Below are positions 22,130 to 43,859 of a stretch of DNA of 64,000 nt, in pieces. The notes under the pieces were generated by a model. That model saw nothing but the letters and a program-made list of their open reading frames with translations. It searched no databases and was not told the origin of the DNA. The stretch is from Mucilaginibacter sp. PAMC 26640. Lineage in GTDB: Bacteria; Bacteroidota; Bacteroidia; Sphingobacteriales; Sphingobacteriaceae. A program made the position numbers and the translations under genes. How positions within the stretch are numbered: the first letter of the stretch is position 1; each line of letters starts with the position of its first letter. The stretch is from positions 4,030,001 to 4,094,000 of the forward strand of contig CP014773.1 of assembly GCA_001596135.1 (NCBI GenBank), given 5' to 3'.

Positions 22130-22167
22130 AAAAATAGATTTGGAGTGATTTTAGAGTGATGAACTGC

Positions 22168-23259: not shown

Positions 23260-24276
23260 ATTGCAATGATTATAATGCAAAAATGCAGCTGCCCACCCGG
23301 CTATTAATTTTCAACTGACTGAGTTGACGAAAATGGCAACCGAAGTTTCAAAAACTGGGAATGATCGAAACGCAGGCGATCCGGCAATTAGAATATAATT
23401 AGAAATGACGAAGGATGACTAGAATTGGTTTTTCGACAGCATAAGAATTCAAATGGCGACTTGGAATTTGCCAAAACTTGAAATAAGGCATAAAAAAAGC
23501 CCTTTTACTACTGTAAAAAGGCTTCTTATAAGGGGGTGGATAACGGTGCAAAATCCGCACCTTTTTGTGGAAGAATTAATTGAAATAGGCGGTTTTTCTA
23601 AAATGCTAAGGATCGAAGAGCAAATATGAATCATCAATTGATTTTGCAACTAAATCATCAGTGAAAAATAATTATATATGTGGAGAATAAATAGAATAAT
23701 CCTTTACGGTCTGAAGATTGATTGATTTCTTACGAAAATCCTATTGGCGGAGTTATAATATCTGACACTGCATCTATTGAATATCAGTAATATAATTTCA
23801 ACCGTGTCGAATATCGCGTTCTCAATACGCGGAGTTTCGTCGTGACTAGCTTCAAGGTTAGTTTAAACACGATCTGCCTTGTCTAATATTTTTTGTATTC
23901 AAGGGCAATAGTTATCGTCCGTTCTTTTTTAAAATCGGAGTTCGGTTTAAGCGGCTAAAAGTAATTGCTTGTCATAGTTTCAAAAACGAAATTTAGGGAA
24001 GGTTTTTAGGGAAGAAATGATAAGCGGAAATAGCGCCCATCGTGTTCATTAGAAAGTTTCCAACGGAACAGTGCCTGGTATTAAGACCAATAATTTATCA
24101 GTGTATCGACTGACCCATATATTTCCGTTGGACGCACTGTCTCGTAATTGATCGAAGTTAAGGCCGTCAACGTGTTCTCATACAAAAGAATGTTACGGTA
24201 GGGGCTGTTTGGAGGATCGGGTGCCAGCCTAAAATTGCTAAGACTTCCAGCAATCTACTGCAGCGTCATATCAAAC
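23260..24276. other. Gene-poor stretch between pump operon and IS630 element
   Basis: About 1 kb with no convincing gene. It holds an intrinsic terminator at 23497-23524 pointing left with no gene feeding it, and a 10-bp inverted repeat (TCCAACGGAA at 24059-24068 against TTCCGTTGGA at 24123-24132) without a T-tract. Probably a region where genes were lost before or during IS insertion. Confidence 0.4.
23497..23524 (-). terminator. Orphan rho-independent terminator
   Basis: Stem AAGCCCTTTTAC/GTAAAAAGGCTT (one mismatch) with a 4-nt loop, followed on the minus strand by seven T residues. No minus-strand gene lies within 700 bp upstream, so the gene it served appears lost. Confidence 0.65.
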
Positions 24277-25959: not shown

Positions 25960-27417
25960 TTAGTCAGCAGCATCATAATTTATTTTTTTACCGCCTACAA
26001 AATCAAAGAGCGTTAGCCGCCGGATATGATAATAGGATTCCCAGAACAAACGGAGATTTTTGATAAAAGACCGTTTGGCCTCATCTTTTTCCGTTAATGC
26101 AATATGAAGGTCAGTAAGGCTGATCCGACCGATTAAAAATTGCTGTTCGGCCAATTCATAACGTTCGTTGGCGATACTATCGGCCTGTCTCGCTATTTGA
26201 ATATTGTCGCTGATCAATTCCGTATTTTGAACAAGGCTAACTATCTCTTGCACGATCGCAAGCTGTTCGAGTTCAACGTTGTATTGTTCTGTTTTTAAAT
26301 TTGACAGCGCGAGGTCGCGTTTACCTTTATTTCGCCCCCAGTCCACAATTGGAATGCTCAAATTCAGCGAGAGTTGTTGCTGGCCCTTAGAGGAACTGTA
26401 AATACCATATATGTCGGCGTCCGAGCCGCTTAACCCGAGAACCGCGCTTAGGGTTATCGAATAACGCTCCCTGTTGGCGCTTTCAAGGTTACTTTTTGCC
26501 TCGAGGATTCTCCTTTTGAAGGCAATAAACTCTTTCCTGTTCATTTTTGCCTCTGCTATGGCCTGATCCAGGGAAAGCCGCATAACCGGGAGGGTATCCG
26601 GAATCAGGAGATCGTTGAGCGCCGTATCCTTAATACCCGCATAAGTCTTCAACTTGTAGATGGCGGACTTAAAGTCGACGTTAGACTTTTGCAGATCCTG
26701 CTGTGAATTTAAGATCCGGAGTTTAAGCTGCAGGATTTTATCTTTGGTGGTCGTACCTAGGCTGACCCGTTTATTTTCGATCTCGTATAAGTGCTGGATG
26801 TTGAAGAGGTTTTTAACAGCGAGTTGCTTATTAACGGATGCTTCAACCGCGTCAAAAAAATAGGTCACCACATTATCAGAAAGGTTTTCCATTTCCTGCG
26901 TAAATGCCTTCCTTGACTCCTGTAATTTCAAAGGCTCGATCTGTTTTTGCCATTTGAACCGGTTATAGGCGAATAAGGGCTGGTTGACCATCAGGTTGTA
27001 GGGACTCCCACTGTATTGCCGGTAATGGTTTCCGAAATCATCAAACCTGGACAAGTTAGTTGTCAGTGAAATATCCGCTCCGGTCGCTAATACACTCTGA
27101 CTGAGCGTAGCTCCCAGGCTTGAATAATTTTGCCTGATCGGTATGAAACGGAATGAACCATCATCCTGAGATATTTTAGAGTATTCTTTCGAATAATTCG
27201 CCAGGCTCCCGGATATCACCACCTGCGGCTTCAGTGTGGCCTTGTAATTTTCGAAGGACAATGCCAACGCCTGTTTGTTACTACCCGCGAGTTTGGCGGA
27301 CGTGGAATGATGTATCGCAAGATCGATGATATTGGCAAGTGAATAACTCTTTTTTTCCTGGCCGTGAGCGCATAACGGGAACAGCAGTAAACATCTCCAA
27401 AGGTATTTTATGGTCAT
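25960..27417 (-). CDS. TolC-family outer-membrane channel
   Basis: A 485-aa outer-membrane efflux protein. ATG at 27417 gives the signal peptide MTIKYLWRCLLLFPLCAHGQ and overlaps the RND stop codon as ATGA, which is tight coupling. Two helical OEP repeats follow (about 25-240 and 260-480). With the adaptor at 30472-31554 and the RND gene between, it completes a tripartite exporter. Confidence 0.9.
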   Translation of the reverse strand: MTIKYLWRCLLLFPLCAHGQEKKSYSLANIIDLAIHHSTSAKLAGSNKQALALSFENYKATLKPQVVISGSLANYSKEYSKISQDDGSFRFIPIRQNYSSLGATLSQSVLATGADISLTTNLSRFDDFGNHYRQYSGSPYNLMVNQPLFAYNRFKWQKQIEPLKLQESRKAFTQEMENLSDNVVTYFFDAVEASVNKQLAVKNLFNIQHLYEIENKRVSLGTTTKDKILQLKLRILNSQQDLQKSNVDFKSAIYKLKTYAGIKDTALNDLLIPDTLPVMRLSLDQAIAEAKMNRKEFIAFKRRILEAKSNLESANRERYSITLSAVLGLSGSDADIYGIYSSSKGQQQLSLNLSIPIVDWGRNKGKRDLALSNLKTEQYNVELEQLAIVQEIVSLVQNTELISDNIQIARQADSIANERYELAEQQFLIGRISLTDLHIALTEKDEAKRSFIKNLRLFWESYYHIRRLTLFDFVGGKKINYDAAD

Positions 27418-30400
27418 TTTGAACGTTTGAATTTGGTCGTTAGGAAGAAGTAAGAAAGGGGCACAAACCATACGGCCAGGAATGTACCGATGGTCAGCCC
27501 CCCGATGATAACATATACCATGGGCCGTTGCAGGTCACTGCCGATACCCGGGGTAAATAAGACCGGGAGTAATGCCAGGCTTGTGCTCAGGGAAGTCATC
27601 AATAGCGGTTTCAGACAAATCTCACCGGCCTGGTGCAACAGCTGTTCCAGCTGTTCTGTCGTTTCTTCTCGCCCCGATTCCTTATACTGCCTGCGGATCC
27701 GGTTGATAGTCTCCACTTTCAATATCGGGTCGTCGACAATGATCCCCAGTACCACGACGAATCCCACTGCCGCCATGATGTCCAGAGTACCGCCGCACAT
27801 CCACAGTAGTAATAAGGCGGCAGAAATACCCAGCGGGAGTGTCAACATCACGATGAAGGGGTAAGCCAGGCTCTCGAACTGCATAGCCAAGATAAAGTAA
27901 AGCAGCAAAATCGAGATAAAAAAGATGATGGCGAGGTCCTTAACAGCGGCCTGGTTGGAAAAGTATTTGCCCGTGAACATGACCGTACAGTTTGAACTAA
28001 GCGCTATCCTCCTCAGCGTGGTCGATAGGTATTCAATATTTCCACTGCCCGCTTGTGTAAACAGAACAGACCGGTAAGGGCCGGATTTATCGGATGTAAT
28101 GTTTTTAGTATGCCGCGCAAAACCGTAATTAACCAGTGCAGAAAGTGGGTAAGAAACCTTGTTCTTGTTGATCCGGGATTGGGTCATGAGGTCCGTGAAA
28201 TCGCCATCGGGGCCGCTTAGCACCAACGATTCCCAGTCCTCCTTGTTCCTTTGACTCATCCGGTAAGAACCGGTTATCCTTTTCAATTCGGATTTGACTT
28301 CGTCATCATTAATGTGGTAGGCTTCCAGCACCTCTTCCTTAAGCGACATGTCTATATTGTCTTCTTCCTGAAATCCCGGCCCGAATTGCCAGGCCCGGTT
28401 ATGGAGGCCTGACAAGGCGCGCTTCACCGACCTGAAGTCCGCTTCACCCGAAGATTCTGTGATTGGCTTGAACCGGGCTTCAAAGTACGGCTCTCTGTTT
28501 TCGAACAACTGGGTAAAGGCATTCGGCGCATCCGTTACCGTAAAAGAAACCCCTGGAAACCTAGATTTTAAGCACCCCGAAAGCCTGTACTCACCCTGTT
28601 TTTTTTCATTTTCGGTTGGGAAACTCAGGTATACTTCGGTGTGCTGTGTGTTGTTCGTGTTTTCGTTGAGCAAAAATTGCCTTATCCCTATTTCAGCCTC
28701 CCACGTTACCTTGCTATTCAACGTACTGATCACCTCAAGTGTACCGGCCCTATTTGCATCGACCGATAGTGGCCTGTTCCAGTCAATAGTCAGGAGGATT
28801 TCATTTTGTGCGATATGCGGTAATGAAGCGATCGGCACATAACGGAAAAAGACCGCGCAAGCTGGCATAAAAAGGATTGTGATATAGAAAAAACGTTTTT
28901 TGTGCCTGAAGATATGATTGATCATCCGGTGGTATTGATGAGATATCCATAAATAGAACCGGGTGTCCTCCTTTAAGGTAAGTTGCCTTTTGCCGATCAG
29001 GAGCTTATAGAGCAAAGGGTTCAACATAAACGCCACCAGAAGCGAAACGATCAGCGATATAGTCAGGGCGGTTGCCTGATCATAAACGAGCGCGCCCGCG
29101 ATGCCACTCAGGTAGATCAAAGGCGCGTAAACCGCCACGGTTGTAAGTACCTGACTAATTACTGGAACAATCACCTCATTCGTGCCCTGTACACAACTTT
29201 CGTCGATGTTCAATCCCTCCAGTTGTTTCCTGTAGATGTTATCTAATACGACAATAGAATTGTCGATCAGCATACCAATCCCCAGTGCAAGCCCCGATAG
29301 GGAAATAATATTGAAAGATATTTGAAAGATATTTGAAAGATATAAAAGAAAACAAAGGAAATAACAAGCGATAGCGGGATACTGATACTCATCAGCAGCG
29401 GCATAGCATAATTTCCAAGGAAAAGAAACAATAACAGCACGCAGAGTATACCCCCAAAAATCAGGTCCTGAACGAGATTGCTTATACCGGCCTCGAGCAG
29501 GAAATTCTGGTTTTGGGTCGTCGAAAAACGAACACCCGGATAATCTTTGCTGAGGAACTTAATGGTGTTCAGCACCCGTGGCAGCAGTTCGTTCATTTTA
29601 GCATCGGGTTGTTTTAAAATATTAATGACCAACCCTTCCTTTCCGTTATACAAATGATACCCGGAAGGCTCCTCCCGGTAATTGGTCACCCGTGCCAGGG
29701 TCGCGAGCGGGACGCTATGGGATGAATCAACTGGAATCATGACGCGCCTGAGCTGGTCCAAATCACCGGAACGGTTTTTGAGCTTTAAAAAGTAGGTGTT
29801 AGTACCATCCTTGACGGTCAGCGAACCGACATCAGCATCCGACGTATTGATAACCTCCGCTATTCGGTCAATATTGATGCCTAGTGCGGACATCGCCCTG
29901 GTGTCGGGTGTGATTTTTACCGCGGGATGCTGGGCGCCATTGATATCTACCATAGCGACCCCGGGGATCTGTTCAAATCGCCTCTTGATCGATTTTTTAA
30001 CCAGCACGGATAATTCCACCAATTTAGCCGTGTCCTGCGGGACCAGCTGGACCCGCAGGATAGGGACATCCGATGTATTCAGCCGCGATATCTGTGGCCT
30101 TGGCAAATCCGTGGGCAGCGTGCTGATCAGCCTGTCTATCTTTTCGTTCATATCCACGTAAGCCAAGTTCATATTCGTACCGAAACTGAATGAGATATGC
30201 AGGATAGCGGCATGATTGGTACTGGTCGCTTCGATATCCTTCAGGTGATCCGCATTTACAATACTTTCCCTGATCAGGCTGGTGACATTCTTTTCGATCG
30301 CCGCTGCCGCAGTATTCGGATAACTTATTTTGATCAGAATGACAGGTACATCGATACCCGGAAGTAAAGAAATCGGGATTTTCCGCAACGCCAGTACCCC

Positions 30401-30466
30401 CAATACACTGATAACCAGGAACGACATTAAAACCGCTATCGGTCTCGCTATTAAATACCTGACCAT
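27414..30466 (-). pseudogene. RND efflux permease, split by an 11-bp repeat gain
   Basis: The N-terminal half (30466 down to the stop at 29267) and the C-terminal half (open from about 29310 to 27414) together make one RND permease of about 1015 aa. The break is at 29311-29343, three tandem copies of TTGAAAGATAT. Removing one copy puts the frame back in register and gives FFYIFQISFNIISLSG leading into GMLIDNSIVVLDNI (TM4). The rest is intact and encodes 12 membrane segments. Belongs to the adaptor-RND-TolC operon: 5 bp after the adaptor, 4-bp overlap with tolC. It is off in this assembly but could be restored by loss of one repeat copy. Confidence 0.88.
29311..29343 (+). repeat. Three tandem copies of an 11-bp unit inside an RND gene
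   Basis: TTGAAAGATAT at 29311-29321, 29322-29332 and 29333-29343, perfect copies. The gene is in frame with two copies (or five), out of frame with three. Confidence 0.95.
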
Positions 30467-30471
30467 AGCCG

Positions 30472-31554
30472 CTATTTTGTGGGGTTACTAATTTTTACAG
30501 GGCTGTCGTTGTTCAGCTGCTGGTTATTGGATACAATTACACTTGAACCGGGTGTAACACCAGATAATATCTCCACCTCTTTACCATCATCATGTCCAGT
30601 ATTAACATAATTCCACACCGCCAGACCATGTTCAAACGTAAATACGATCATTTTTCCGCTCCTGGTGACAACGGCACGTTTCGGGATCATCAGCGCGCGG
30701 TTTTCCGGAATATTGATAACTGCCTGTGCGTTCATCCCAGGTAGCAGCCCCACAAAATCTCGGATATGTAGCCGGACCCTGACCATGCCATTTTCGTCGA
30801 CGATTGGGTTGATTTCTCCGACAACCGCTCCGTGTACTTTTCCTGTGGCCAAAGGGATCACAGTACCGGCCTGCCCAATTTTTATTTTATTGATGTCCTC
30901 CTCCAGCAGACTGGTTTCCAGCGACAGTTCACCGGACGAGTAAACAGTAAACAATTCATCCCCCGCACGAACAAAATCCCCTTGGTGCACCTTGACATTG
31001 GCCACTTTCCCGGCAAAAGGGACTCGGACAGAGGCCCTGGAAAGTTCATTTTCACGTTCCTGAATGTCAAGTTCAGCCTGGACTAAGCCCGCGTTCGATT
31101 TAATTTTATGGTAAACCGTATCAAGCGTTGCACGGCTTTTGTTTTTCAGCAGGCTTTCCTGACTCAACAGATCGCTCTTATAGTTAACGGAACTGTTAAA
31201 AGCAGTTTCTTTGGCCCTGTTCAATTTGATGATCAGGTCTTTGGTATCAAATTTCAGCACCTCTTCACCCGATCCGAACACCGCGCCGTTACCAGCCCTA
31301 CTCAGTTCAATAAAGCCGCTCATCGTGCTGTAGATTTTTGCAATTTTCTCAGGGTAAACTTTTCCGGCACCTTCGACTTTAAACTGTATTTTTTTTGTTT
31401 GGGCGCGAATAGTGTCGACCGGTATCTGTTCCATTGTTACTGGCACCAGGCTTAAAGAATCAGCGTTTTCTTTTTCCTTTTTTGGCCCTGAGCAAGATTG
31501 AAAAAAGCAGAACAGCGCCGCCGCAGAGAGTATAAAAACCATTTTTTCTGTCAT
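30472..31554 (-). CDS. RND efflux periplasmic adaptor lipoprotein (MFP)
   Basis: A 360-aa adaptor with a lipoprotein signal peptide (LFCFFQSC, lipidated Cys near residue 21). It has the split barrel-sandwich/lipoyl halves (GSGEEVLKFDTKDL and GKVANVKVHQGDFVRAGD), a helical hairpin between, and the C-terminal beta-barrel and membrane-proximal domains. First gene of the operon; divergent from the small peptide gene. Confidence 0.9.
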   Translation of the reverse strand: MTEKMVFILSAAALFCFFQSCSGPKKEKENADSLSLVPVTMEQIPVDTIRAQTKKIQFKVEGAGKVYPEKIAKIYSTMSGFIELSRAGNGAVFGSGEEVLKFDTKDLIIKLNRAKETAFNSSVNYKSDLLSQESLLKNKSRATLDTVYHKIKSNAGLVQAELDIQERENELSRASVRVPFAGKVANVKVHQGDFVRAGDELFTVYSSGELSLETSLLEEDINKIKIGQAGTVIPLATGKVHGAVVGEINPIVDENGMVRVRLHIRDFVGLLPGMNAQAVINIPENRALMIPKRAVVTRSGKMIVFTFEHGLAVWNYVNTGHDDGKEVEILSGVTPGSSVIVSNNQQLNNDSPVKISNPTK

Positions 31555-31811
31555 AAATTGATCCCATGTTTAGAGTTTTTAAAAAGCGTTATTGTTTCAT
31601 TTTTATGTGAAATAGTATTTATATATATATCAAATATCATTTTATCAGGATTAACAAGAAAAAATGAAAAAGCAAATTATATTCTCAATAATAACAAAAA
31701 AAAATATTTTATTCTGTTGTTATTTAATTTTTTGTTATATAGTTTTGTTTAGCAGTCGGCCGACAGCGTTCAATTAAATTATTATTTATTATTAATTAAA
31801 AAAACATCATT
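31555..31811. other. Divergent intergenic region, very A/T-rich
   Basis: 257 bp between the pump operon and the peptide gene; carries the peptide promoter and presumably the pump promoter. Long A and T tracts suggest bent DNA. Confidence 0.6.
31717..31747 (+). promoter_or_regulatory. Bacteroidota-type promoter of the peptide gene
   Basis: TTG at 31717-31719, a 20-bp spacer, then TAGTTTTG at 31740-31747, a perfect match to the TAnnTTTG -7 element. Predicted start of transcription is about 31753, giving a leader of about 60 nt. Confidence 0.55.
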
Positions 31812-32012
31812 ATGAACAGCTTAAAAAAACACTTTTCAAAAATCGTCGCAACTGCTCTTCTTGTAGGTTCAGGAATTATTTTCCCAGTAAGCAAATCGAA
31901 TGCAACTGTACCTACCACTTATTGCTGGGGCTCACTGCGTACAGTGCAAGGCATCGCAGTTTGTGATGGTAGCGCAAACAACTGCACACATCCATGTTCA
32001 CCGGCTAATTAA
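31812..32012 (+). CDS. Small secreted four-cysteine peptide
   Basis: A 66-aa precursor. The first 31 residues are a signal peptide (basic KKHFSK, hydrophobic IVATALLVGSGIIF, cleavage after SNA). The mature part is about 35 aa, TVPTTYCWGS to CTHPCSPAN, with cysteines at 38, 51, 58 and 62, so two disulfides are possible. It stands directly between a promoter and a hairpin terminator, so it should be made in excess over the downstream genes. Layout resembles Bacteroidota small-peptide loci that sit beside beta-propeller lipoproteins (the NVEALA type), but the NVEALA motif itself is absent. No known family is recognised. Possible roles: signal peptide, bacteriocin or cofactor carrier. Confidence 0.65.
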   Translation: MNSLKKHFSKIVATALLVGSGIIFPVSKSNATVPTTYCWGSLRTVQGIAVCDGSANNCTHPCSPAN

Positions 32013-32018
32013 TCGTGA

Positions 32019-32051
32019 AAGGCCTGTCAGGTTTAAAAGCCTGACGGGCTT
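32019..32051 (+). terminator. Terminator/attenuator after the peptide gene
   Basis: Strong hairpin AAGGCCTGTCAGG/CCTGACGGGCTT with an 8-nt loop, followed by CTTTT. It is 7 bp after the peptide stop. Read-through would feed the lipoprotein-RND genes that follow. Confidence 0.75.
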
Positions 32052-32264
32052 CTTTTCAAAACGTGTCCGATCATATCTTTGGTCGATACGATCAAGGTCT
32101 GCAAATATTTTTTCTTCAGCAACTGTAAAACTGACAGAGTCGAACGGTTGCCGCTACCCATTTCCCAGTTTGCGATAAATTCCTTTTTGATAGTGTTGAA
32201 AACTATGTAAAGGTCACAAAAGAGCCAGCTACCCGATGTAATTCTTCAATCAATATACGAGAAC

Positions 32265-33470
32265 ATGAAACAACTGCAAAGCATTCAGATAAAAACCATT
32301 GCAATAGCTGCCTTATCCAGCCTTTTGCTCTTTTCCTGCCGGTCATTTGGAAACAGAAACCCTGAGGCCAAGGAAATCTCCTTTAAAATTACCGACAGCA
32401 TCCCGTTGTACAACGACTCGCTTTCGTTCCGGTTCTTCGATATCAGTAAGATAGCACACGATTCGATACTCGCATTTCAGCACCCAGCCTTAAATTTATC
32501 ACTGTTAAACCACAAAGGCGTTTTTCAGAAAACCATCAGTAAAAAAGGAGAGCTGCTCGGACAATTTGTTGGCACCTTTATTCAGCCTAACCTGTCAACA
32601 GATAATTTTCTTTTTGTTGTAGAAGACGGTAATACACCATGCATTTCCATTTTCAATCCTGCATTTAAATTTGTAAAAAGGATATATCTTAACCAATATA
32701 TTGACTACGATTATGTCCCCACGTTGCAATCCACATCCTTTGTAGAAAAAACGGACGGCGTAACAAAATTATTCCTGAGCACGAATACCACTCAATATGG
32801 ATTCAGTTCACCCGACCTTTACAAAAGAACCAGTAGTGTTATGGAACTCGATCTGGATAAAGACTTCAATGTGATTAGTAAAAAAAGGTACCTGCCCTAC
32901 AAAAATTACCCTAAAATCCAGTCAGCCTTAGCCGCAAATAAAAAGGACTGGGACAGCCCGGTCGCGCAGATTGCCGCAGATGCACCCACGAAAACCAAAT
33001 ACGTTAAATACGAGTTCGATGATAACCTCTATGCTTATGACGATAATTGGCATTTAATCAAAACCTATGCCGTTTCACCGCCATATGCGACCGGAGGCTA
33101 CAGCATTCCGTTTAACCAAGGTATCAGAGACCAGCAAAAAAGCACCGAAACGGACTTTAAATTAAGGTATGCCAATATTTATTATTACAGCATGGACATC
33201 AAAGATGGTAAAGCATTCATCCTTTACCTCAAACCTCTGGAGGCAGATGCGATACCTAAAAATCAATTTGAAGAAAACAAAGTAGTGGTTACGCCCGTGC
33301 TACATGTAATCGATCTTAAAACGGACAAGCAATTTTTTGTAAACCTTCCCGTGAAGCTTTCCCCTTACAGTCACGTAGCCGCACTAAATAGTAACGAGGT
33401 GATGATCTCGGGAAATTCCAAGATCAACGAAGATATTCAACTCTACAAAATCAAGCTTAATTATGAATAA
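32265..33470 (+). CDS. Beta-propeller-like lipoprotein (DUF4221 type)
   Basis: A 401-aa lipoprotein; signal peptide ends LLLFSC with lipidation at Cys 25 or so. The mature part has repeated beta-strand blocks of a six-bladed propeller (for example ILAFQHPALNLSLLNHKGVF and FVVEDGNTPCISIF), like the DUF4221/6-bladed-propeller proteins found beside small secreted peptides in Bacteroidota. Function unknown; a surface receptor or scaffold is likely. Its last 8 bp overlap the next gene. Confidence 0.7.
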   Translation: MKQLQSIQIKTIAIAALSSLLLFSCRSFGNRNPEAKEISFKITDSIPLYNDSLSFRFFDISKIAHDSILAFQHPALNLSLLNHKGVFQKTISKKGELLGQFVGTFIQPNLSTDNFLFVVEDGNTPCISIFNPAFKFVKRIYLNQYIDYDYVPTLQSTSFVEKTDGVTKLFLSTNTTQYGFSSPDLYKRTSSVMELDLDKDFNVISKKRYLPYKNYPKIQSALAANKKDWDSPVAQIAADAPTKTKYVKYEFDDNLYAYDDNWHLIKTYAVSPPYATGGYSIPFNQGIRDQQKSTETDFKLRYANIYYYSMDIKDGKAFILYLKPLEADAIPKNQFEENKVVVTPVLHVIDLKTDKQFFVNLPVKLSPYSHVAALNSNEVMISGNSKINEDIQLYKIKLNYE

Positions 33471-33909
33471 GGCGAATCTCGTGGTAGCTGCATGTATGAT
33501 CGGCTGCCTCTTTTCCTGCAATAGCCATCAGAAAGATGAAAGCGATAGATTCCGGGTAGCTGATTCCATTTTAATGAAGAACCTGGTGGGGACTAACAAG
33601 TCTGCTACATTTTACCTGATTGCTGATGCTTCGTGTGAATTTTGTATTAAAAACCTGGAATTTTACCTAAGTAAAATCCCTCGGAAAGAGCGGTATATTA
33701 TTTATACCACTGCTTTCCGTAAAATTCGTTACAGAGATCTTCCCGTCAGCAATATTGTAGATAGCAGTAATCTCGTGATATTACAGGGGTATACCCTGCT
33801 CGAGAATGTTGCCGCGCTCACAAAGGATATCAAAGGCCCATATAAAATAACAATGGACAAAAATCGGGTCAAAAATATTTCTCCGCTGATGCCTCACGTC
33901 ACCAAATAA
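33463..33909 (+). CDS. Small CxxC lipoprotein, possible thiol oxidoreductase
   Basis: A 148-aa lipoprotein (signal ends IGCLFSC). It carries ASCEFC at about residues 52-57, a thioredoxin-like CxxC placed after a FYLIAD strand, as in a thioredoxin fold. The fold is short and lacks a clear cis-proline motif, so activity is uncertain. Translationally coupled to the propeller gene. It may oxidise or shuffle disulfides of the four-cysteine peptide encoded upstream. Confidence 0.65.
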   Translation: MNKANLVVAACMIGCLFSCNSHQKDESDRFRVADSILMKNLVGTNKSATFYLIADASCEFCIKNLEFYLSKIPRKERYIIYTTAFRKIRYRDLPVSNIVDSSNLVILQGYTLLENVAALTKDIKGPYKITMDKNRVKNISPLMPHVTK

Positions 33910-34013: not shown

Positions 34014-37000
34014 ATGACGCCGATTAGAATTGTCATGCTGTTTATTGTGACCGCAATGCTGAGCATTTTTTGTCTTAGCAAATTAAATATCAGTTATTTA
34101 CCGGCGCAGACAACGGCTAACCAGATCTCTATACTTTTTAGCGTTGCTGATGCCGACCCGGAACAGACGGAGACACTCGCAACAGAACCGTTAGAGAATA
34201 TCCTTTCCGGAATTAATGGGATCAAAAAAATATCTTCCGTCTCCTCTTACAATTCCGGGCGCATAGTTGTTACTTTTGAGAGTAAATCTGATTTCGACTA
34301 TAAATATTTTGAAATCATTTCAGCGGTTCGGGAAGCGAGACAGCACCTTTCGCCACGTGTCTCATTTCCATTGGTGAGTAAAGGCGAAGAAATGAACACG
34401 GCTGATAAAACCCCGCTACTGGTTTATACGATCGAGTTCAAAAAAAACAGCGCTGAAACCAGCAATAACGTACAACTTTCTATCAGACAAAAGCTCGCTG
34501 CCGTACCAGGTATCAGGCGGATAGAGTTATCAGGGTATGACGATCAGCAGTTGAATATTATTTATGACCAGCAAAAACTACAGGCATTACAGCTTCGGCC
34601 GGAATCCCTGGTATCTGCTATCAGGAAAAACACGACGGAGTTTTATCCTGGACTGACCAATGTCGGCACTTACGGGCAAATGGCCGTGAGGGTATTCCAT
34701 CCCATCAGTTCTTTATTGGACATCAAAAACATCCCGGTTGTCACTCTGCAGGCAGGACTGGTTCATTTGGGCGATTTAAGCAATGTTTATCTCGGTAATA
34801 AGCCTGCCGAAAATATCTTCAGGATTAACGGTAAAAAGTCGATTAATTTAAGCATATATGCTGACGACCGAAAAAATCAGCTTGAAGCAACAGTGCACAT
34901 CAAACAGGCAATCCTAGGCATTGAAACGGCGTTTGATAAAAATTGCAGTTTTGTACTTACCCATGATAACTCGGCATATATCAGGACCGAACTTCGGGAA
35001 AACATTATCAGGAGCTGTTTTGTGGTCATCATTTTGGTCATTCTGCTATTTATTTCATACCGCGACTGGCAGCCTCTTATCATATTAACGGGTACATTAC
35101 TAATCAACCTCGGACTCCTCGTATTGTGCTGCTGGTTTCTTCGTGTGGAAATCCATCTTTACTCCCTGGCCGGTATTACCATCGCCTTCGGTATAATGAT
35201 TGACCATGCGATCATTATATTCGACTACTTCCATCAGTATAAGAATATCAAATCGTACACCGCATTGTTGGGTGCGACGCTCACGACGATCGCCTCCCTG
35301 TTGTTGGTTTTTCTTTTACCCGATGAAGAAAAGAAAAACCTGGGTGATTTTTCCATTATTATTTGCCTGGCATTGGGTTCATCCCTGCTGACAAACCTGT
35401 TCTTTACAATTTCACTTTACAAAATCACATACGGCTCCGGTTGGAACAGGCCGGCACCCGGCGTTGTGACGGAAGCCCAAAAAGTCTCGATGAAAGCAGG
35501 CCGGGTTTATTTTATCCTCATTAAAAACACAGGGAGGTTCAAAAAAACATTCCTGGTTGCAGTCACCCTATTATTTGGATTACCAATTTTCCTGCTTCCT
35601 GATAAGCTGGAAAATTCCTCTCTTTATAACCGGACAATAGGATCTGATGTATATCAGCAATACCTCAGGCCTTACCTGGACAAATACACTGGCGGATCGC
35701 TCCGTTTATTCAAGGTCAATGTATTTGATGGCAGCGGTTTTCGGGACGCAGGCAAAACAAAACTGGTGATCAACGCAGAAATACCACCAGGCAAACCAAT
35801 TGAACAAATGGATCAGCTTTTCATCGCGCTGGAAAATTTCCTCAAACCGTACGAAGGCATCGATAAATATATCTCAAGAATCTATTCCCCGCAGAATGGC
35901 GTTATGGAAATCTTTTTTAAAAAGGGCTTTGAACATTCGGATTATCCAGGGCGGATTAAATATCTCTTGACCAATAAAGTGATTTTTTATGGCGGGGTGA
36001 CCTGGAGTATTTACGGTTCCGGACAGGGCTTCAGTAATTCGATGGAAAATCAACTACCTTTTTTTCGGATAAAGTTGAGCGGTTATGACGCGGGGACATT
36101 GGATAGGCTGGTATCCGACTACGGCCATTTACTCAGCTCCAATAAACGTGTGGGCAAAGTTGAACTAAACGAGCGGTACACTTATGAAGATAAACCAGGC
36201 CAGCAATATAATTTCCATATCAACGACAGCGCATTGACGGCAAGGAACCTGAACCACGCAGATCTCAACACAGCCCTGGCCTGGGAAAGGGATAATCCCG
36301 AAATCTCCGCCATTAACGTGGACAACACTTTTTACCCGCTTCATTTCACCGCATCCGGAACGTCCACACTTACCGAATGGGACCTGCTCCATGACCCGCT
36401 TCTTATCAGTAATGAAAAGGCGATCAGGTTTTCAGGCATGGGAAAGATAACCCTGGATAAGACATCCGGTGCTATTTATAAAGAGAACAGACAGTACCTC
36501 AGGGTTGTCAGTTTTGAATACAACGGATCGGCAAACTTCGGGGACCGCTTTCTGGAAAAAAGTATGACGAATTTCAAAAAGAGCCTGCCGGAGGGTTATT
36601 TCTTAGAAAGGGTCAATGATTCAAGAACTCAAAAGAATGATGATGCCATCTATGGAACCATCGTTGTCTTGTTGATAATCACAAACTATATCATTTGTTG
36701 TATCCTGTTTGAAAACCTCTTCCAGCCGCTGGCCATCATCTTTACCATACCAGTTTCTTTCATCGGTATATTTTTGACTTTCTATTGGTTTGGTATTTCG
36801 TTCGATCAGGGTGGCTACGCTTCATTTATCATGCTTGGAGGCTTGGTAGCCAATGCCGGTATCTTCATCATCAACGATTACAATATGCTGCAGAAGAAAT
36901 TCCCGGAAGAAAACAGAAACAAGCTTTTGACCAATGCAATCTTAAACAGGTTCAGGACCATTTTACTAACAAGTATATCGGCCGTTTGCGGTTTAATCCC

Positions 37001-37178
37001 GTTTTTATTCCAGGGAAATAATGAGGTATTCTGGTTCTCCTTTGCAACAGGTACCATCGGCGGCGTCGCCTGCTCTTTTTTCAGCGTGTTTATTTTTCTT
37101 CCCGTCATGCTTTGGAACCGGGATGGCAAACGCGACGTCCCTGATTTATCTTTCAAGCTTCAGGAAACCCGGAAATGA
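34014..37178 (+). CDS. Divergent RND-family permease
   Basis: A 1054-aa RND protein with 12 membrane segments and two large periplasmic loops. It is unusual: the TM4 acidic pair is D397-H398 (FGIMIDHAIII) and TM10 has A946-N947-A948 (GGLVANAGIF), so the normal Asp-Asp/Lys proton relay is not conserved. The first periplasmic domain is short. It has no adaptor or channel gene of its own on this strand; it may pair with the divergent adaptor/TolC set. Likely exporter of the small peptide or a lipid/peptide-dependent conformational machine. Confidence 0.85.
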   Translation: MTPIRIVMLFIVTAMLSIFCLSKLNISYLPAQTTANQISILFSVADADPEQTETLATEPLENILSGINGIKKISSVSSYNSGRIVVTFESKSDFDYKYFEIISAVREARQHLSPRVSFPLVSKGEEMNTADKTPLLVYTIEFKKNSAETSNNVQLSIRQKLAAVPGIRRIELSGYDDQQLNIIYDQQKLQALQLRPESLVSAIRKNTTEFYPGLTNVGTYGQMAVRVFHPISSLLDIKNIPVVTLQAGLVHLGDLSNVYLGNKPAENIFRINGKKSINLSIYADDRKNQLEATVHIKQAILGIETAFDKNCSFVLTHDNSAYIRTELRENIIRSCFVVIILVILLFISYRDWQPLIILTGTLLINLGLLVLCCWFLRVEIHLYSLAGITIAFGIMIDHAIIIFDYFHQYKNIKSYTALLGATLTTIASLLLVFLLPDEEKKNLGDFSIIICLALGSSLLTNLFFTISLYKITYGSGWNRPAPGVVTEAQKVSMKAGRVYFILIKNTGRFKKTFLVAVTLLFGLPIFLLPDKLENSSLYNRTIGSDVYQQYLRPYLDKYTGGSLRLFKVNVFDGSGFRDAGKTKLVINAEIPPGKPIEQMDQLFIALENFLKPYEGIDKYISRIYSPQNGVMEIFFKKGFEHSDYPGRIKYLLTNKVIFYGGVTWSIYGSGQGFSNSMENQLPFFRIKLSGYDAGTLDRLVSDYGHLLSSNKRVGKVELNERYTYEDKPGQQYNFHINDSALTARNLNHADLNTALAWERDNPEISAINVDNTFYPLHFTASGTSTLTEWDLLHDPLLISNEKAIRFSGMGKITLDKTSGAIYKENRQYLRVVSFEYNGSANFGDRFLEKSMTNFKKSLPEGYFLERVNDSRTQKNDDAIYGTIVVLLIITNYIICCILFENLFQPLAIIFTIPVSFIGIFLTFYWFGISFDQGGYASFIMLGGLVANAGIFIINDYNMLQKKFPEENRNKLLTNAILNRFRTILLTSISAVCGLIPFLFQGNNEVFWFSFATGTIGGVACSFFSVFIFLPVMLWNRDGKRDVPDLSFKLQETRK

Positions 37179-37443
37179 AATTAGTATTAGTCGGGTGCCA
37201 TATACCGTTTCGCTCCAATCGCCATTTCGTCACCCGATAATAGGTATTAGTCACATATTTTGATAGGTTCGTCATTCTCCTGACAGATCATCGATTAATT
37301 TTCCATAATTTAATACAGTAAAAAGTTTTGACGTTCGGCTTCGCGAGGGGGCACATCGACGAGTGGGACATACGCCCGTTACGTTTGATAGGAAGCACAA
37401 TCTTTTTTCAACCAACCTTTGCCTTAATAAATTTTTTATAAAA
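37179..37443. other. Intergenic stretch before the LytTR gene
   Basis: 265 bp with no gene. Contains TACGTTTG at 37380-37387, an exact -7 type match, but no good -33 partner. Start of the next gene is set at 37444, where the receiver domain begins. Confidence 0.4.
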
Positions 37444-38175
37444 ATGCTGAAATGCTGTATTATCGAGGATGTACCGACCTCATCACAACTTATTGAAAAT
37501 TATATCAACGATACCCCAGGACTAGAATTCGCAGGCTGTTCCGTTGGGTTGAACAACGGGATCAATCTGGTTAACCGTATATTACCAGACCTCACGTTTG
37601 TTAATGCCAGTATGCGGGAAATTTCCGGGATAGATCTCGCCAAATTGACAAGTAGCCTGACAACCGTTATACTGATCACCGAAGATCCGGATCTCGCCTT
37701 GGCCGCATATGATAACGAGATCTTCGATTACCTGCTCCAACCTGTCCCTTACTGGCGCTTTATAAAGTGCCTGACCAACCTGAAAAACATAGCCAAAAGG
37801 CTTAGCGCTTATTCCCGCGAAAACCATTTTTTCATTCGAACAGAGGCCCGCGGAAAATTCATCAGGATCAATTTTTCGGATATCGTCTATATAGAAGGAG
37901 CTTTAAATTATATTCATATTCACCTTGTCGACGGTACCCGGATTAAAACCTACATTTCGTTGACCGATATTTACGCCAATCTGAACCCTTTCAAGTTCAC
38001 CAGAATTCACCGGTCCTATATCATCAACAACGACCTGCTCACAGAAGTCAACGGAAATGACATTGTCATGTGCGGAAGGGCTTCTCTGACAATTGGAGCC
38101 GCTTACAAAACCAGTTTCTTTGACAGCCTTGCACACAAGGTAATCGGGGCAAAAAAAGTAACGGAAGAAGTATAA
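37444..38175 (+). CDS. LytTR regulator with a degenerate receiver domain
   Basis: A 243-aa protein. The receiver-like domain keeps the acidic pair E8/D9, but the phospho-acceptor Asp is Asn54 (LTFVNASM) and the conserved Lys of YLLKP is Gln (YLLQPV). The LytTR DNA-binding domain (about 145-240, FTRIHRSYIINNDLL) is intact. It should bind DNA independently of phosphorylation, or respond to another ligand. The longer frame from 37363 adds 27 residues without homology, so ATG 37444 is chosen. Confidence 0.85.
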   Translation: MLKCCIIEDVPTSSQLIENYINDTPGLEFAGCSVGLNNGINLVNRILPDLTFVNASMREISGIDLAKLTSSLTTVILITEDPDLALAAYDNEIFDYLLQPVPYWRFIKCLTNLKNIAKRLSAYSRENHFFIRTEARGKFIRINFSDIVYIEGALNYIHIHLVDGTRIKTYISLTDIYANLNPFKFTRIHRSYIINNDLLTEVNGNDIVMCGRASLTIGAAYKTSFFDSLAHKVIGAKKVTEEV

Positions 38176-38179: not shown

Positions 38180-40009
38180 TCAGGAACCACCGCTATGACT
38201 TTCAATCACCTCTCTCAGGGAAACTCTAATATCCACTCTGGCTCCGACTGACTGGTGAAGAATCTCACCCGATTTACCAATCACAATATGCACCGGCAAC
38301 ACGTTGGTATTGAATTGTTTGCTTAGATTGCCTTCAAAATTCAGAATTTTATATTTGAAGATCCGGTTATCCAGAAAATAATCTACTCTCTGCTTTTTAT
38401 CCGCTGTAATCGCCAGGAAAACTATATCCGACCGGTTACGGTACCCGTCGACCAGTTGATTTAACTCCGGAATTTCCGCAACACATGGAGCGCAACCAAT
38501 GCTCCAGAGATTAATAACGATGATTTTGCCTTTAAAATCAGCGAGCTGAACCTGCGAGCCATCTAATGCCGTACAATGAAAATCAGTAATTGGTGGGACA
38601 TCAGGATCCGCATGTATCTCCCCCTTTCGCGCTATTGAAGACAGAAATGTCGCAAATGAATCTTGCGTTATATTGTATTCTTTAAATAATTTCCGCAGAG
38701 AATCTAATGCAGCGGGATCGGCGTCCCGGTATAAACTTACATAGTCGTTCAGCGCACGGGTATAATCCCCGGCAAGCTTGTATGAATTTGCCCGTACAGA
38801 CAGAATTGATCGCTTGAAATTGTCTGCAGTACTGCTGCCACCGATTATCTGTAACGCTGCCGAAGCATGAACGATTGCGCTGCTGTAATTTTTTTGCAAC
38901 ACAGCGACCTTGGCAAGGTCCAGCAACGTGAGGGGTACATAAAGCTGGTATTGTGCGTCTGTGATGCGCTCCTCATGGTTAACACGGCCATCCTGAAAAT
39001 ATTTCAGTTCTTTTTTCAGTAATAACTCCGCTTTTCTGGCTTTTAACTTACGGGATATATATATTTCAGGCAGTTGATTTAAGCGGTAATAGCTGATAGT
39101 TCCGTTTTTATAAGCAGGGCCCGATACCCGCTCAAACGCACGAACCGGAATCGTTCGATCATCCTGCAGGTAGTCCCAAATGATATCGTCTTTTGAAAGT
39201 TCGGCATCCGGGTATCGCATAAAAATTTCCCTGAGCCGGGATCGAATATCATCCGCGATTGCCTTACCGGATGCTTTATAGTTTTCATAATTATAAATGG
39301 TAAAGGCAAACCGTGTTTCTGCACTCGCCGGGAAAAGGTTTAACATCCGCAAAAGATAATCCTTTCCGCTTTTCATGTCCCCTGTTTTAGCGTAAGCGAC
39401 GCACAAAGCAGCTAATAGTCCGGAATTCCCGTCCGGTGATCCTTTCCTCCCCCTGGCTATCTCCAGCAGTTTATGCAGCATGTCCTGAATCTCCTTCTTT
39501 CCCTCGCTACCTTCCTTGATCATGGAAACCACGTTGATATAGCTGGCATAGGCCAGGAAATTATCCGGATACCGGCCAATTTCCTGGAGAAATAAGCTAT
39601 CGGGGTGATCGGAAAAAAAAGCCTGTAATAAGGCGCCCCTTACCGGTGTCCTTTTATTCGGTGTATAAACCAGTAAGTCTATCGCTGCATTGTGATCGTC
39701 TTTATTTAGGGTGTAAAATCCTGCTTTAAGGGAAGCTGCCTCCGGTACCTTAAATAATGCGGTCAGCAGTTTCCCACACATTCTCATTCTTCGGTGACAA
39801 CTTTGCATCGTTCCATCCTGAAAATAAGTGCTTACCCTTAAAAAGACCGGGGAATTTCCACGTAAGGCAGCCTGTGGATCCAACGAATCATAAGTGAAAC
39901 GGATAGTTTCCCCCGCTGCGGGCTTTAAGATATTCACCCGTCCAGGCTGCGTCCATGCCAAAAAAGGCAGGCAGCATATGAATACATATAAGAAAGAAAT
40001 TTTGACCAT
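38180..40009 (-). CDS. Secreted TPR and TlpA-type thioredoxin protein
   Basis: A 609-aa exported protein; ATG 40009 gives the signal peptide MVKISFLYVFICCLPFLAWTQ. Residues ~100-460 are helical TPR-like repeats and the last ~140 residues are a TlpA/AhpC-TSA thioredoxin domain with SIGCAPC (CxxC) and a NLWS start. Periplasmic disulfide reductases of this type act in cytochrome or secreted-protein folding. Convergent with the degenerate LytTR gene, 4 bp apart. A second thiol protein in the peptide cassette. Confidence 0.85.
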   Translation of the reverse strand: MVKISFLYVFICCLPFLAWTQPGRVNILKPAAGETIRFTYDSLDPQAALRGNSPVFLRVSTYFQDGTMQSCHRRMRMCGKLLTALFKVPEAASLKAGFYTLNKDDHNAAIDLLVYTPNKRTPVRGALLQAFFSDHPDSLFLQEIGRYPDNFLAYASYINVVSMIKEGSEGKKEIQDMLHKLLEIARGRKGSPDGNSGLLAALCVAYAKTGDMKSGKDYLLRMLNLFPASAETRFAFTIYNYENYKASGKAIADDIRSRLREIFMRYPDAELSKDDIIWDYLQDDRTIPVRAFERVSGPAYKNGTISYYRLNQLPEIYISRKLKARKAELLLKKELKYFQDGRVNHEERITDAQYQLYVPLTLLDLAKVAVLQKNYSSAIVHASAALQIIGGSSTADNFKRSILSVRANSYKLAGDYTRALNDYVSLYRDADPAALDSLRKLFKEYNITQDSFATFLSSIARKGEIHADPDVPPITDFHCTALDGSQVQLADFKGKIIVINLWSIGCAPCVAEIPELNQLVDGYRNRSDIVFLAITADKKQRVDYFLDNRIFKYKILNFEGNLSKQFNTNVLPVHIVIGKSGEILHQSVGARVDIRVSLREVIESHSGGS

Positions 40010-40227
40010 GTTCTTGCTTTTTTGTAAATTGAACACAATCATTTTGAGAAGCAATATAATTTGACGAACCCCCAATTCAACCGTACAAGGCAAGGTTGTC
40101 AGGCATTAAATACAGGAATGGCACTGTGAATTGTCGTTCATCGGGAAAAAACAGCTATCCGTCATAGCTTTTTAGTGGTTTGTCATTAAAATCCAACGAT
40201 TATTTATAATATCTATACCTTGAGCAC

Positions 40228-41328
40228 ATGAAATGGTTAAAGACCTTTTGGGATAAATCTTTTACAAAACTTCCATACCGGTTGTTTTTGCATGGCAGTT
40301 TTTGGTTTATTCTTCTTTTTTTCGGGATGGAAGAAAGCACTATTGTGCGCATCGATCTACAGCAGCGTATTTTCGTATCACTGGTGGGGGTGTTTTTCGC
40401 CTTGTTTTTATATTACCCCCTGATCTATTTCATTTTACCCTTTTTACAAAAAAAAAAATGGTTGCCGGCACTATTCTTTTTCGTACTTTATTACGTCGCG
40501 GCCATAATATTGAGGAATTACCATATTCAGCTGGTGGTGGGGCTTTACAACCTCAAAGGCAAATGGGTAGTTGGTGAAGACTTTTGGGACAGACTTTACC
40601 AAAATAGATTCAATATGACTGGTATAACAGAAATTCTTTTCAGCAGTTTACCCAGCATGTTACAGGTCATTTATATCCCGTTAGCCATTAAATTTATCCG
40701 TTATGCCTATCAATTCAATATCAGACAGGCCTGGCTCGCCAAGGAAAACGCACAATTACAGTTATCGACGCTGAAGGCCCAGATCAATCCTCATTTTTTC
40801 TTTAACACGCTGAACAATCTTCAATCTTTTATTGTGCAGAACGAGAAAGAAAAATCGGTTGACTTGTTGAACAAGCTGGGTGAATTTATGCGTTCAACCC
40901 TATACGAATGCGAAGATGAATATATCACGATGAACCAGGAGATTACCCTGCTGCAGAATTATGTGGCCATTGAGCGGGTACGTTTCGCTGAACTGGCAAA
41001 GATCAGGATCAGCTTGATCGATGAAGACCCGAACTATCGCATCCCTCCTTTTATCTTCCTGCCTTTTATGGAAAATGCATTTAAATATGGTGGGGCTTTG
41101 CCAACGAAAGAAATTGCCATAAATGTGGAATTGGTCAATTCAGCGGAACGGCTTTATTTAAAATCAACCAATAAGTATTACCAGGAACCAGGTGCAACCG
41201 CTCAAGGAGGGATTGGCTTACACAACGTCCGGCAGCGTCTGAATTACTACTTCAAAGAAAAACATAACTTGGACATATGCCAGACACAAGACTTTTTTAA
41301 CGTAGAACTACAAATTGATAAACAATGA
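40228..41328 (+). CDS. LytS-type sensor histidine kinase
   Basis: A 366-aa kinase with four hydrophobic segments in the first 160 residues. The His_kinase signature is INPHFFFNTLNNL (around 188-200), followed by an ATPase part with FLPFMENAFKYG and GIGLHNVRQRL. Its stop overlaps the next start as ATGA, so kinase and regulator are coupled. Divergent from the TlpA protein; the 218-bp spacer holds both promoters. Confidence 0.93.
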   Translation: MKWLKTFWDKSFTKLPYRLFLHGSFWFILLFFGMEESTIVRIDLQQRIFVSLVGVFFALFLYYPLIYFILPFLQKKKWLPALFFFVLYYVAAIILRNYHIQLVVGLYNLKGKWVVGEDFWDRLYQNRFNMTGITEILFSSLPSMLQVIYIPLAIKFIRYAYQFNIRQAWLAKENAQLQLSTLKAQINPHFFFNTLNNLQSFIVQNEKEKSVDLLNKLGEFMRSTLYECEDEYITMNQEITLLQNYVAIERVRFAELAKIRISLIDEDPNYRIPPFIFLPFMENAFKYGGALPTKEIAINVELVNSAERLYLKSTNKYYQEPGATAQGGIGLHNVRQRLNYYFKEKHNLDICQTQDFFNVELQIDKQ

Positions 41329-42017
41329 ATTACCTGATTGTTGACGACGAACCCCAAGCCCGCAAATTGCTGCAGGCTTATATGGAGAACATGAACTCCT
41401 ACCATCTCGTGAGGCAATGCGAGAGCGCCATGGAGGCATTTGAAACGCTTTACAGTGAAAAGATCGATATGATGTTTCTTGATATTAAGATGCCTATCAT
41501 ATCCGGAACTGATTTCCTGCGTTCATTAAAGAATCCTCCACTGGTAATTTTTACAACTGCCTATAATAAATATGCTATGGAAAGCTACGAGTTGAATGTC
41601 GTCGACTATTTGTTAAAACCGATCGCTCTTCCAAGGTTACTACAGGCATTGGAAAAAGTTCAAAACAGATTGTTAAGTCAAAGAAACCCGGCAATAAACG
41701 ACCAGGTTAGACATTTGTTCGTTAAAGTAGGGCTCAAAATTCTCAAAGTAAATTTAGATGAAATTTTATTGATTGAAGGAATGCAAAATTATTGCAAACT
41801 GCATTTGAAGGATAAAGTTATGGTTGCCGGTAATACTATGAAAGCCATGGAAGATATGTTACCTGCCAATGCGTTTATCAGGGTTCACCGATCTTATATT
41901 GTACCTGTTGCGACAATTAACGCCATTATTGGCAACACCATTGAAACTTCCTATCAACAGGTTCCTATCGGCGTAAACTACCGATCTGCAATTTTAAAAT
42001 ATGCTAACGCCAGGTAA
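41325..42017 (+). CDS. LytTR-family response regulator
   Basis: A 230-aa regulator. The receiver is intact (VDDE near residue 6-9, acceptor Asp in MMFLDIKMP, Lys in YLLKPI) and the LytTR domain is at about 130-228 (FIRVHRSYIVPV). Partner of the kinase encoded upstream (4-bp overlap). Together they probably control the peptide/RND cassette. Confidence 0.93.
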   Translation: MNYLIVDDEPQARKLLQAYMENMNSYHLVRQCESAMEAFETLYSEKIDMMFLDIKMPIISGTDFLRSLKNPPLVIFTTAYNKYAMESYELNVVDYLLKPIALPRLLQALEKVQNRLLSQRNPAINDQVRHLFVKVGLKILKVNLDEILLIEGMQNYCKLHLKDKVMVAGNTMKAMEDMLPANAFIRVHRSYIVPVATINAIIGNTIETSYQQVPIGVNYRSAILKYANAR

Positions 42018-43529: not shown

Positions 43530-43573
43530 CCCGCTAAATTCAACTTTTTATTCCCATACTTGTGTACACACAG
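42121..43573 (-). mobile_element. IS4-family (IS50-like) insertion sequence, defective
   Basis: 1453 bp. End repeats: CGGTGTGTACACA at the left and, inward from 43573, CTGTGTGTACACA (12 of 13 match). The right end continues AAGT, giving TACACAAGT as in the IS50/Tn5 outside end. No target duplication is visible (GCGGCCCTA to the left, TAGCCAAAG to the right). Encloses a broken transposase. Confidence 0.75.
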
Positions 43574-43800
43574 TAGCCAAAGGGAGGGGGACTTCGCCTC
43601 GATTTATGAAGAAGTTCATGGGCAATCGATAGGCGCTATGACTATCTCCACCCAACTGAAAGCCTTCGGATTCGGCTTCCGCAAATCCCGGGAAATCCTG
43701 ACCAGCCCAGATCCCCTCTTTCGTGAAAAACTCAACCACATCAAATAAATCCTCTCCAACCTGAGCGTGGAAAAAACTATAGCACTGTTATATCATTGAA
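43574..43800 (+). pseudogene. Scrap of an IS630-like transposase
   Basis: A remnant of about 70 codons directly abutting the IS4-like right end. Reads EGDFASIYEEVHGQSIG and FGFRKSREILTSPDPLFREK, a winged-helix segment like IS630-family transposases, interrupted by TAA at 43746-43748, then continues ILSNLSVEKTIALLYH. Probably the target into which the IS4-like element moved. Confidence 0.5.
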
Positions 43801-43859
43801 CAGGTCAAAAAGTATGCAGTTGGATACCATTAGAGAGTTGGAAGGTCACGAAAGTTTGA

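What the first reader, a model, noticed from the sequence alone, without database searches (positions are those of the whole stretch)
31717..32051. Unrecognised secreted four-cysteine mini-protein gene
Signal peptide, SNA cleavage site, a mature part with C38, C51, C58 and C62, TTG-N20-TAGTTTTG promoter and strong terminator. A compact gene built for high output, flanked by regulated transport genes. No family matched by eye.
Basis: seen in the sequence. Interest (0 to 1): 0.7.

Follow-up and report, generated by a model that had tools for sequence, protein, structure and literature searches.

The report
Small secreted cysteine peptide with exporter
A soil bacterium carries a tiny secreted peptide, likely held by disulfide bonds, that matches no catalogued family and in the five genomes where it was found sits beside the same partner genes, which suggests a dedicated peptide-making and perhaps peptide-export unit.

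Summary
A 66-codon gene at 31812-32012 (+) has a Sec-type signal sequence, an SNA site, a 35-residue mature part with C38, C51, C58 and C62, a Bacteroidota-type promoter and a strong hairpin after the stop. The window protein matches nothing in Pfam or NCBIfam. It is a real gene: Mucilaginibacter gossypii has a syntenic copy under purifying selection with the same promoter, and three more genomes, one in another family, carry diverged copies. In all five loci found it precedes an unnamed lipoprotein (predicted six-bladed propeller, closest solved fold DUF4221) and a CxxC protein (probable thioredoxin fold); in four of five it lies beside two RND permeases and their adaptor. C-x6-C is invariant; C1 and C4 are present or absent together. 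Relatives of RND2 in six other genomes have NVEALA or other cysteine peptides nearby: 10 of 11 NVEALA matches there lie within 20 kb of RND2. A strong hairpin follows 10 of 17 peptide genes and 0 of 22 other cassette genes. Best reading: a disulfide peptide made in excess, oxidised in the periplasm, escorted by the propeller and exported by the RND pump. Export and role are inferred. It is a new peptide family in the cargo position of NVEALA-type cassettes.

The parts
31717..31747 (+). Bacteroidota-type promoter TTG-N20-TAGTTTTG
   Evidence: Read directly; same element and spacing in M. gossypii. TANNTTTG was not found within 180 bases upstream of the G145, G666a or G666b peptide genes. That TANNTTTG is the Bacteroidota consensus is recalled.
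31812..32012 (+). gene of the 66-aa secreted cysteine peptide
   Evidence: ORF; ortholog L035 5700-5891, 79% identical; relatives in G145, G337 (two), G666 (two)
31812..31904 (+). signal sequence, residues 1-31, likely cut after SNA
   Evidence: Lysine-rich start, hydrophobic core, S-N-A site read by eye
31905..32009 (+). mature 35-residue part, C38/C51/C58/C62
   Evidence: Read directly; C51 and C58 invariant in 7 of 7 family peptides, C38 and C62 both present in 4 and both absent in 3 (and raw sequences)
32021..32057 (+). hairpin and T-rich tail between peptide gene and lipoprotein gene
   Evidence: -24.5 kcal/mol, z -5.8; hairpins also follow the last peptide gene before the lipoprotein in the other four loci (z -3.4, -6.2, -3.2, -4.5)
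32265..33470 (+). lipoprotein (LFSC lipobox by eye), predicted six-bladed beta-propeller
   Evidence: No Pfam match; model pLDDT 78, pTM 0.80; best solved match 3s9j DUF4221, Z 23.8, rmsd 3.9, 339 aligned
33463..33909 (+). small CxxC protein with lipobox-like start, probable thioredoxin fold
   Evidence: C58 and C61 invariant in 6 of 6; model pLDDT 82; Foldseek best E 4.8e-4, TM 0.3-0.4; VIA best Z 7.0, rmsd 3.8, 109 aligned, listed rows thioredoxin-like
34014..37178 (+). RND permease 2
   Evidence: ACR_tran E 9e-83; 66%, 37% and 34% identical to M. gossypii, G337 and G666 copies
30472..31554 (-). RND periplasmic adaptor (membrane fusion protein)
   Evidence: RND_mfp E 3.6e-40, above cutoff; copies in M. 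gossypii, G337, G666
29267..30466 (-). RND permease 1, N-terminal piece (frame interrupted)
   Evidence: ACR_tran; one intact 1013-aa frame in M. gossypii
27414..29273 (-). RND permease 1, C-terminal piece
   Evidence: ACR_tran
25960..27471 (-). outer membrane efflux protein (TolC type)
   Evidence: OEP E 6.7e-32
37363..38175 (+). LytTR response regulator
   Evidence: LytTR E 7.3e-15
38180..40093 (-). TPR and AhpC/TSA-type thiol-disulfide protein
   Evidence: AhpC-TSA E 6.6e-13
40228..41328 (+). sensor histidine kinase
   Evidence: His_kinase E 2.3e-23; M. gossypii copy 74% identical
41325..42017 (+). LytTR response regulator paired with the kinase
   Evidence: Response_reg and LytTR; M. gossypii copy 80% identical

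Best explanation
The gene encodes the cargo of a small peptide-secretion unit. The peptide leaves the cytoplasm by Sec and loses its signal sequence after SNA. In the periplasm it is oxidised to one or two disulfides (C51-C58, and C38-C62 where present), helped by the CxxC lipoprotein at 33463-33909, and bound or escorted by the propeller lipoprotein at 32265-33470. The RND permeases with adaptor and TolC-type channel then move it outside. The hairpin behind the peptide gene keeps peptide transcript in excess over its helpers, and the LytTR/kinase pairs control the unit. The released peptide most likely acts on other cells, as a signal or an antibacterial. Shown: gene, conservation, cassette order, partner folds as models, hairpins, nearness of this RND type to other cysteine peptides. 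Inferred: disulfide pairing, redox role, export by RND, regulation, biological role.
For: Peptide-propeller-CxxC order in 5 of 5 loci found. Two RND permeases plus adaptor beside it in 4 of 5. C1 and C4 co-vary, and every mature peptide, cut where I judge by eye, has 2 or 4 cysteines. Probable thioredoxin fold of the CxxC protein. Hairpin: 4 of 7 family peptide genes and 6 of 10 peptide genes at RND2-relative loci (8 NVEALA-type, 2 other) at z <= -2.5, against 0 of 22 other cassette genes that I picked. Six of six further genomes with an RND2 relative at E <= 1e-180 (7 of 141 genomes with own) have secreted cysteine peptides within about 20 kb. A whole-genome NVEALA search of those six gave 11 matches in four genomes, 10 of them within 20 kb of RND2, against 0 of 118 phylum genomes. 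LytTR and kinase genes near four of five family loci.
Against: G145 has a MacB/FtsX permease and a lantibiotic dehydratase instead of RND genes beside its peptide. RND1 is interrupted in this assembly. RND genes with LytTR/kinase genes occur also without such a peptide noted, in this window at 14716-23280, so part of the link could be general. No expression, secretion or activity data. The window family has no detectable sequence homology with NVEALA peptides (hhalign 15.9% on 12 leader columns), and propellers and CxxC proteins of the two kinds do not align by profile either. The fold match of the CxxC protein is middling (best Z 7.0). Only samples of 100-400 genomes were searched at a time.
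Confidence: 0.5

Rival explanations
1. The peptide stays in the periplasm as a ligand or subunit of the propeller lipoprotein and tells the two-component system about envelope or redox state; the RND pump is what is regulated, not its exporter.
For: Kinase/LytTR genes near four of five loci; propeller and CxxC partners are the constant part (5 of 5) while the transporter type differs in G145.
Against: Tandem or paired peptide copies in G337 and G666, variable tails and hairpins behind the peptide genes look more like a released product than a sensor subunit.
Confidence: 0.27
2. It is the precursor of a ribosomally made, enzymatically modified peptide (lanthipeptide-like).
For: A lantibiotic dehydratase (Lant_dehydr_N and _C, E 4.5e-50 and 1.5e-53) lies in the same run of genes in G145.
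Against: In the window no dehydratase, radical-SAM or cyclase family was seen among the 27 of 51 ORFs of 120 aa or more that were scanned; a Sec-type signal is unusual for such precursors (recalled).
Confidence: 0.1
3. A bacteriocin whose propeller lipoprotein is the immunity protein.
For: Gene order peptide then lipoprotein; hairpin between them; sporadic spread (3 of 149 genus genomes, own included).
Against: The propeller is 400 aa and the CxxC partner is present in all five loci, more than immunity needs; no activity data.
Confidence: 0.1
4. Chance open frame.
For: Short; no named family.
Against: Syntenic orthologs, third-position bias, promoter conserved in M. gossypii.
Confidence: 0.01

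Closest known systems
NVEALA peptides (Pfam PF14055)
   Same: Short Sec-type cysteine peptides near propeller lipoproteins (TolB_like at G224), CxxC proteins and an RND pair of the same type; hairpin behind several of the genes.
   Different: No family peptide matches the model; no NVEALA motif; ordinary AxA-type site; C-x6-C core; no profile similarity.
DUF4221 family (BVU_1028, PDB 3s9j)
   Same: Propeller lipoprotein model matches over 339 of 362 residues, Z 23.8.
   Different: 12% identity; no Pfam match for any of five homologs at E up to 5.
TlpA/ResA/DsbE thioredoxin-fold proteins
   Same: Closest solved folds of the CxxC protein.
   Different: No Pfam thioredoxin hit for the window protein; one homolog touches AhpC-TSA at E 0.14; TM-scores 0.3-0.4, Z at most 7.0.
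Gram-positive LytTR-controlled bacteriocin/pheromone peptides (Com/Blp type; recalled)
   Same: Small secreted peptide, dedicated exporter, kinase plus LytTR regulator.
   Different: Here Sec signal and RND candidate exporter instead of a double-glycine leader and ABC exporter; no homology claimed.

Membership tests
NVEALA (PF14055) | Match to the Pfam model | tested here: not met
   None of 7 family peptides matches PF14055 (listing at E <= 10, HMMER filters on); own genome has no NVEALA at E <= 1e-4
NVEALA (PF14055) | NVEALA-like motif at the end of the signal region | tested here: not met
   Window has SKSNATV; no [VI]EALA in any of the 7
NVEALA (PF14055) | Sequence-profile similarity to NVEALA peptides | tested here: not met
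   hhalign of 7 family against 8 NVEALA-type peptides: probability 15.9% over 12 leader columns
NVEALA-type cassette (works like) | Propeller lipoprotein and CxxC protein beside the peptide, RND pair in the neighbourhood | tested here: met
   for the family (RND pair in 4 of 5); for NVEALA loci; the parts are alike in kind, not in sequence
DUF4221 (for 32265-33470) | Pfam match | tested here: not met
   0 of 5 at E <= 5
DUF4221 (for 32265-33470) | Same fold | tested here: met
   Z 23.8, rmsd 3.9, 339 aligned, first in the list; NHL propellers follow at Z 21.5
Thioredoxin-like superfamily (for 33463-33909) | Thioredoxin fold with CxxC at the start of the first helix | tested here: inconclusive
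   Model: strand 48-54, CxxC 58-61, helix 59-69; the rows listed are thioredoxin-like, but TM 0.3-0.4, one row at E <= 0.001, best Z 7.0, rmsd 3.8, 109 aligned
Lanthipeptide precursor | Dehydratase or cyclase in the cluster | tested here: inconclusive
   Dehydratase at G145; not seen in the 27 of 51 window ORFs scanned
RND-exported peptide | Secretion depends on the RND genes | not testable with these tools
   Needs a deletion strain and secretome

The most novel reading that the evidence does not exclude
A class of paired RND permeases in Bacteroidota is a dedicated secretion system for Sec-exported, disulfide-bonded peptides. NVEALA peptides and this unnamed C-x6-C family are two unrelated cargo families of the same machine, each with a propeller escort and a CxxC oxidant, controlled by two-component systems; the products are intercellular signals or antibacterials.
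Probability: 0.3. Interest if true: 0.78.

Novelty: new variant of a known kind. Interest (0 to 1): 0.55.

Why it matters
NVEALA peptides are a Pfam family named only after a motif, and the held library of open papers returned no paper with the word. The finding adds a second, unrelated peptide family in the same genetic slot and links both to one type of RND permease, which makes one clear test possible: do these pumps secrete peptides? If yes, RND pumps gain a new class of natural substrate and Bacteroidota gain a peptide communication or warfare route.

Tried and rejected
Protein search with the 66-aa peptide alone in 100 genomes: 60 of 100 had rows at E <= 10. Besides the own gene only G024 (E 4.4e-4) was below 0.01; it lies antisense to a 446-aa frame and was dropped; the other rows were not followed. 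Peptide profile in 398 genomes: 7 genomes at E <= 0.01; G116, G337 and G145 are real, the other four (E 0.004-0.0075) were dropped, of which only L046 was looked at. Weak propeller hit G914 (E 1.9e-4) is by eye an NHL-type repeat protein with no family peptide seen beside it, dropped. Viral contigs: no relative. Plasmids: no match. Rfam: nothing over 31400-32400 at gathering score. PDB by sequence: nothing for the propeller, only chance-level rows (E 0.27 or more) for the other two. Membership of NVEALA was tested and rejected. The upstream frame 31664-31777 has a look-alike in M. gossypii (L035 5533-5688), but both lie over the conserved promoter DNA, so I do not call it a gene. Paper searches listed nothing on this system; I saw listings and abstract starts only and read no paper.

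Numbers to read with care: the genome draws overlap, and one search scored five candidates a genome. Hairpins: weak after the first of the two G337 peptides (z -1.0) and the second G666 peptide (z -2.0); for the second G337 peptide z is -2.4 with 70 bases and -3.2 with 56 bases. Four of ten peptide genes at RND2-relative loci show none. The two G241 matches and the third G268 match are not. The 22 comparison genes were picked by me from the five family loci and G224. Seven family peptides come from five genomes, so the joint loss of C1 and C4 (4 with both, 3 with neither) is few independent events. The control loci were those already held, not a random draw.

Full report
What was checked. The promoter TTG-N20-TAGTTTTG (31717-31747) is present. 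The sequence after the stop folds into a long hairpin followed by a T-rich tail (-24.5 kcal/mol, z -5.8), although a simple terminator scan did not list it. The window peptide has no Pfam or NCBIfam match and the family profile has only chance-level PDB rows.

It is a real gene. Mucilaginibacter gossypii Gh-67 (L035) has the same gene order and a 63-aa copy, 79% identical. The two copies differ by 21 synonymous and 13 non-synonymous codons, by codon position 11, 7 and 28 (p 1e-4), in the mature part alone 6, 4 and 19 (p 4e-4). The promoter block is kept. The contig length shared by G116 and the M. gossypii record and the 'same genus' label of G116 place the window in the genus of M. gossypii.

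It has relatives, found through its neighbour. The 401-aa lipoprotein downstream occurs, own genome included, in 3 of 149 genus genomes, 4 of 399 of the family and 2 of 395 of the phylum; in the family of G666 in 2 of 148, one of them a false lead, and in the genus of G337 in 1 of 145. Each of the five true loci (window, M. gossypii, G145, G337, G666) has a short secreted peptide gene just before it: one in the window, M. gossypii and G145, two in tandem in G337, and in G666 one before and one after the helper genes. G666 is of another family of the class. Across the seven peptides the core C-x-G-x4-C is invariant. The spacing C-x12-C-x6-C-x3-C is the same in window, M. gossypii and the first G666 peptide; the second G666 peptide has C-x14 at the start. 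In G145 and both G337 peptides the first and last cysteine are both absent. That pattern suggests a nested pairing, C51-C58 inside C38-C62; it rests on few independent events and is an inference.

Its partners. The lipoprotein has no Pfam match in five homologs, but its model (pLDDT 78, pTM 0.80) is a propeller whose best solved match is DUF4221 protein BVU_1028 (3s9j; Z 23.8, rmsd 3.9, 339 aligned). The 148-aa protein after it has an invariant CxxC in six homologs and a model (pLDDT 82) whose closest solved folds are TlpA, ResA and DsbE-like thioredoxin proteins; the match is consistent but middling (TM 0.3-0.4; best Z 7.0, rmsd 3.8, 109 aligned). Around them lie, in the window, an outer membrane efflux protein, RND1, adaptor, RND2, LytTR regulators, a kinase and an AhpC/TSA-type protein. 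M. gossypii, G337 and G666 have the same adaptor, RND1 and RND2 (adaptor 71, 46 and 36% identical; RND2 66, 37 and 34%). G145 differs: a MacB/FtsX permease and a lantibiotic dehydratase lie in the run after the CxxC gene. Kinase and LytTR genes lie near the window, M. gossypii, G145 and G337 loci; in about 50 kb around G666 I saw none by reading ORF starts, without a family scan.

The wider link. A search with four RND2 proteins found 7 of 141 family genomes at E <= 1e-180, own included. Around RND2 in the other six I read 15 to 37 kb. All six have small secreted cysteine peptides about 3 to 19 kb from RND2. Of eight peptides of G224, G268 and G270 scanned, seven pass the NVEALA cutoff of Pfam and one falls below it; G285 and G273 have longer cysteine-rich peptides without a Pfam match, next to DUF5128 propellers. 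A whole-genome search for NVEALA in the six genomes gave 11 matches in four of them (G224 4, G241 2, G268 3, G270 2; ten above the cutoff), and 10 of the 11 lie within 20 kb of RND2; the eleventh is on another contig of G241. The same search over 118 phylum genomes gave none at E <= 1e-4, with one of 14 controls positive. TolB_like propellers (G224), CxxC proteins and signal peptidase I genes recur at these loci (partly by eye). By sequence the two peptide families are not related, nor do the propellers or CxxC proteins of the two kinds align. So the window peptide is not an NVEALA protein; it stands where one would stand.

A shared expression device. With 70 bases after each stop and 100 dinucleotide shuffles, z <= -2.5 was reached after 4 of 7 family peptide genes and 6 of 10 peptide genes at RND2-relative loci (eight NVEALA-type, two other), and after 0 of 22 lipoprotein, CxxC, adaptor, RND or channel genes picked from the same cassettes. 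A hairpin right behind a structural peptide gene is a usual way to make much product and little helper from one promoter (recalled for bacteriocin and similar operons).

Reading. I take the peptide as the product of the unit, oxidised and escorted in the periplasm and exported by the RND machine (0.5). A periplasmic ligand in an envelope-sensing circuit is the main rival (0.27). The export step, the pairing of cysteines, the redox role and the final function are not shown. The state of the pump in the window strain is also uncertain because RND1 is interrupted in the assembly at short direct repeats, while M. gossypii has an intact frame.

Noticed in passing
29267-29350: RND permease 1 is split into two frames at a place with short direct repeats of about 11 bases; M. 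gossypii has one intact frame. Could be an assembly slip, a decayed gene or a slippage-type switch.
   Followed up: partly
17657-22129: A 1490-aa protein joins a full RND permease (ACR_tran 4-1017) to an outer membrane efflux domain (OEP, best stretch 1319-1487), near an adaptor and a kinase/LytTR pair at 14716-16537.
   Followed up: no
42118-48633: DDE transposase match, TraG/TraD-type coupling protein and a recombinase family protein: perhaps remains of a mobile element right beside the cassette.
   Followed up: no
L048 3544-6420: Lantibiotic dehydratase in the same gene run as a family peptide in G145.
   Followed up: partly
L062 44-844, L071 1115-2050, L074 3970-4842: Signal peptidase I genes (L062 by NCBIfam; the others by eye) within NVEALA/RND loci: possibly a dedicated peptidase for these peptides.
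   Followed up: partly
L065 14875-15282, L066 16774-17139: Two further unnamed cysteine-rich secreted peptides (135 and 121 aa) before DUF5128 propellers, with no Pfam or NCBIfam match.
   Followed up: no
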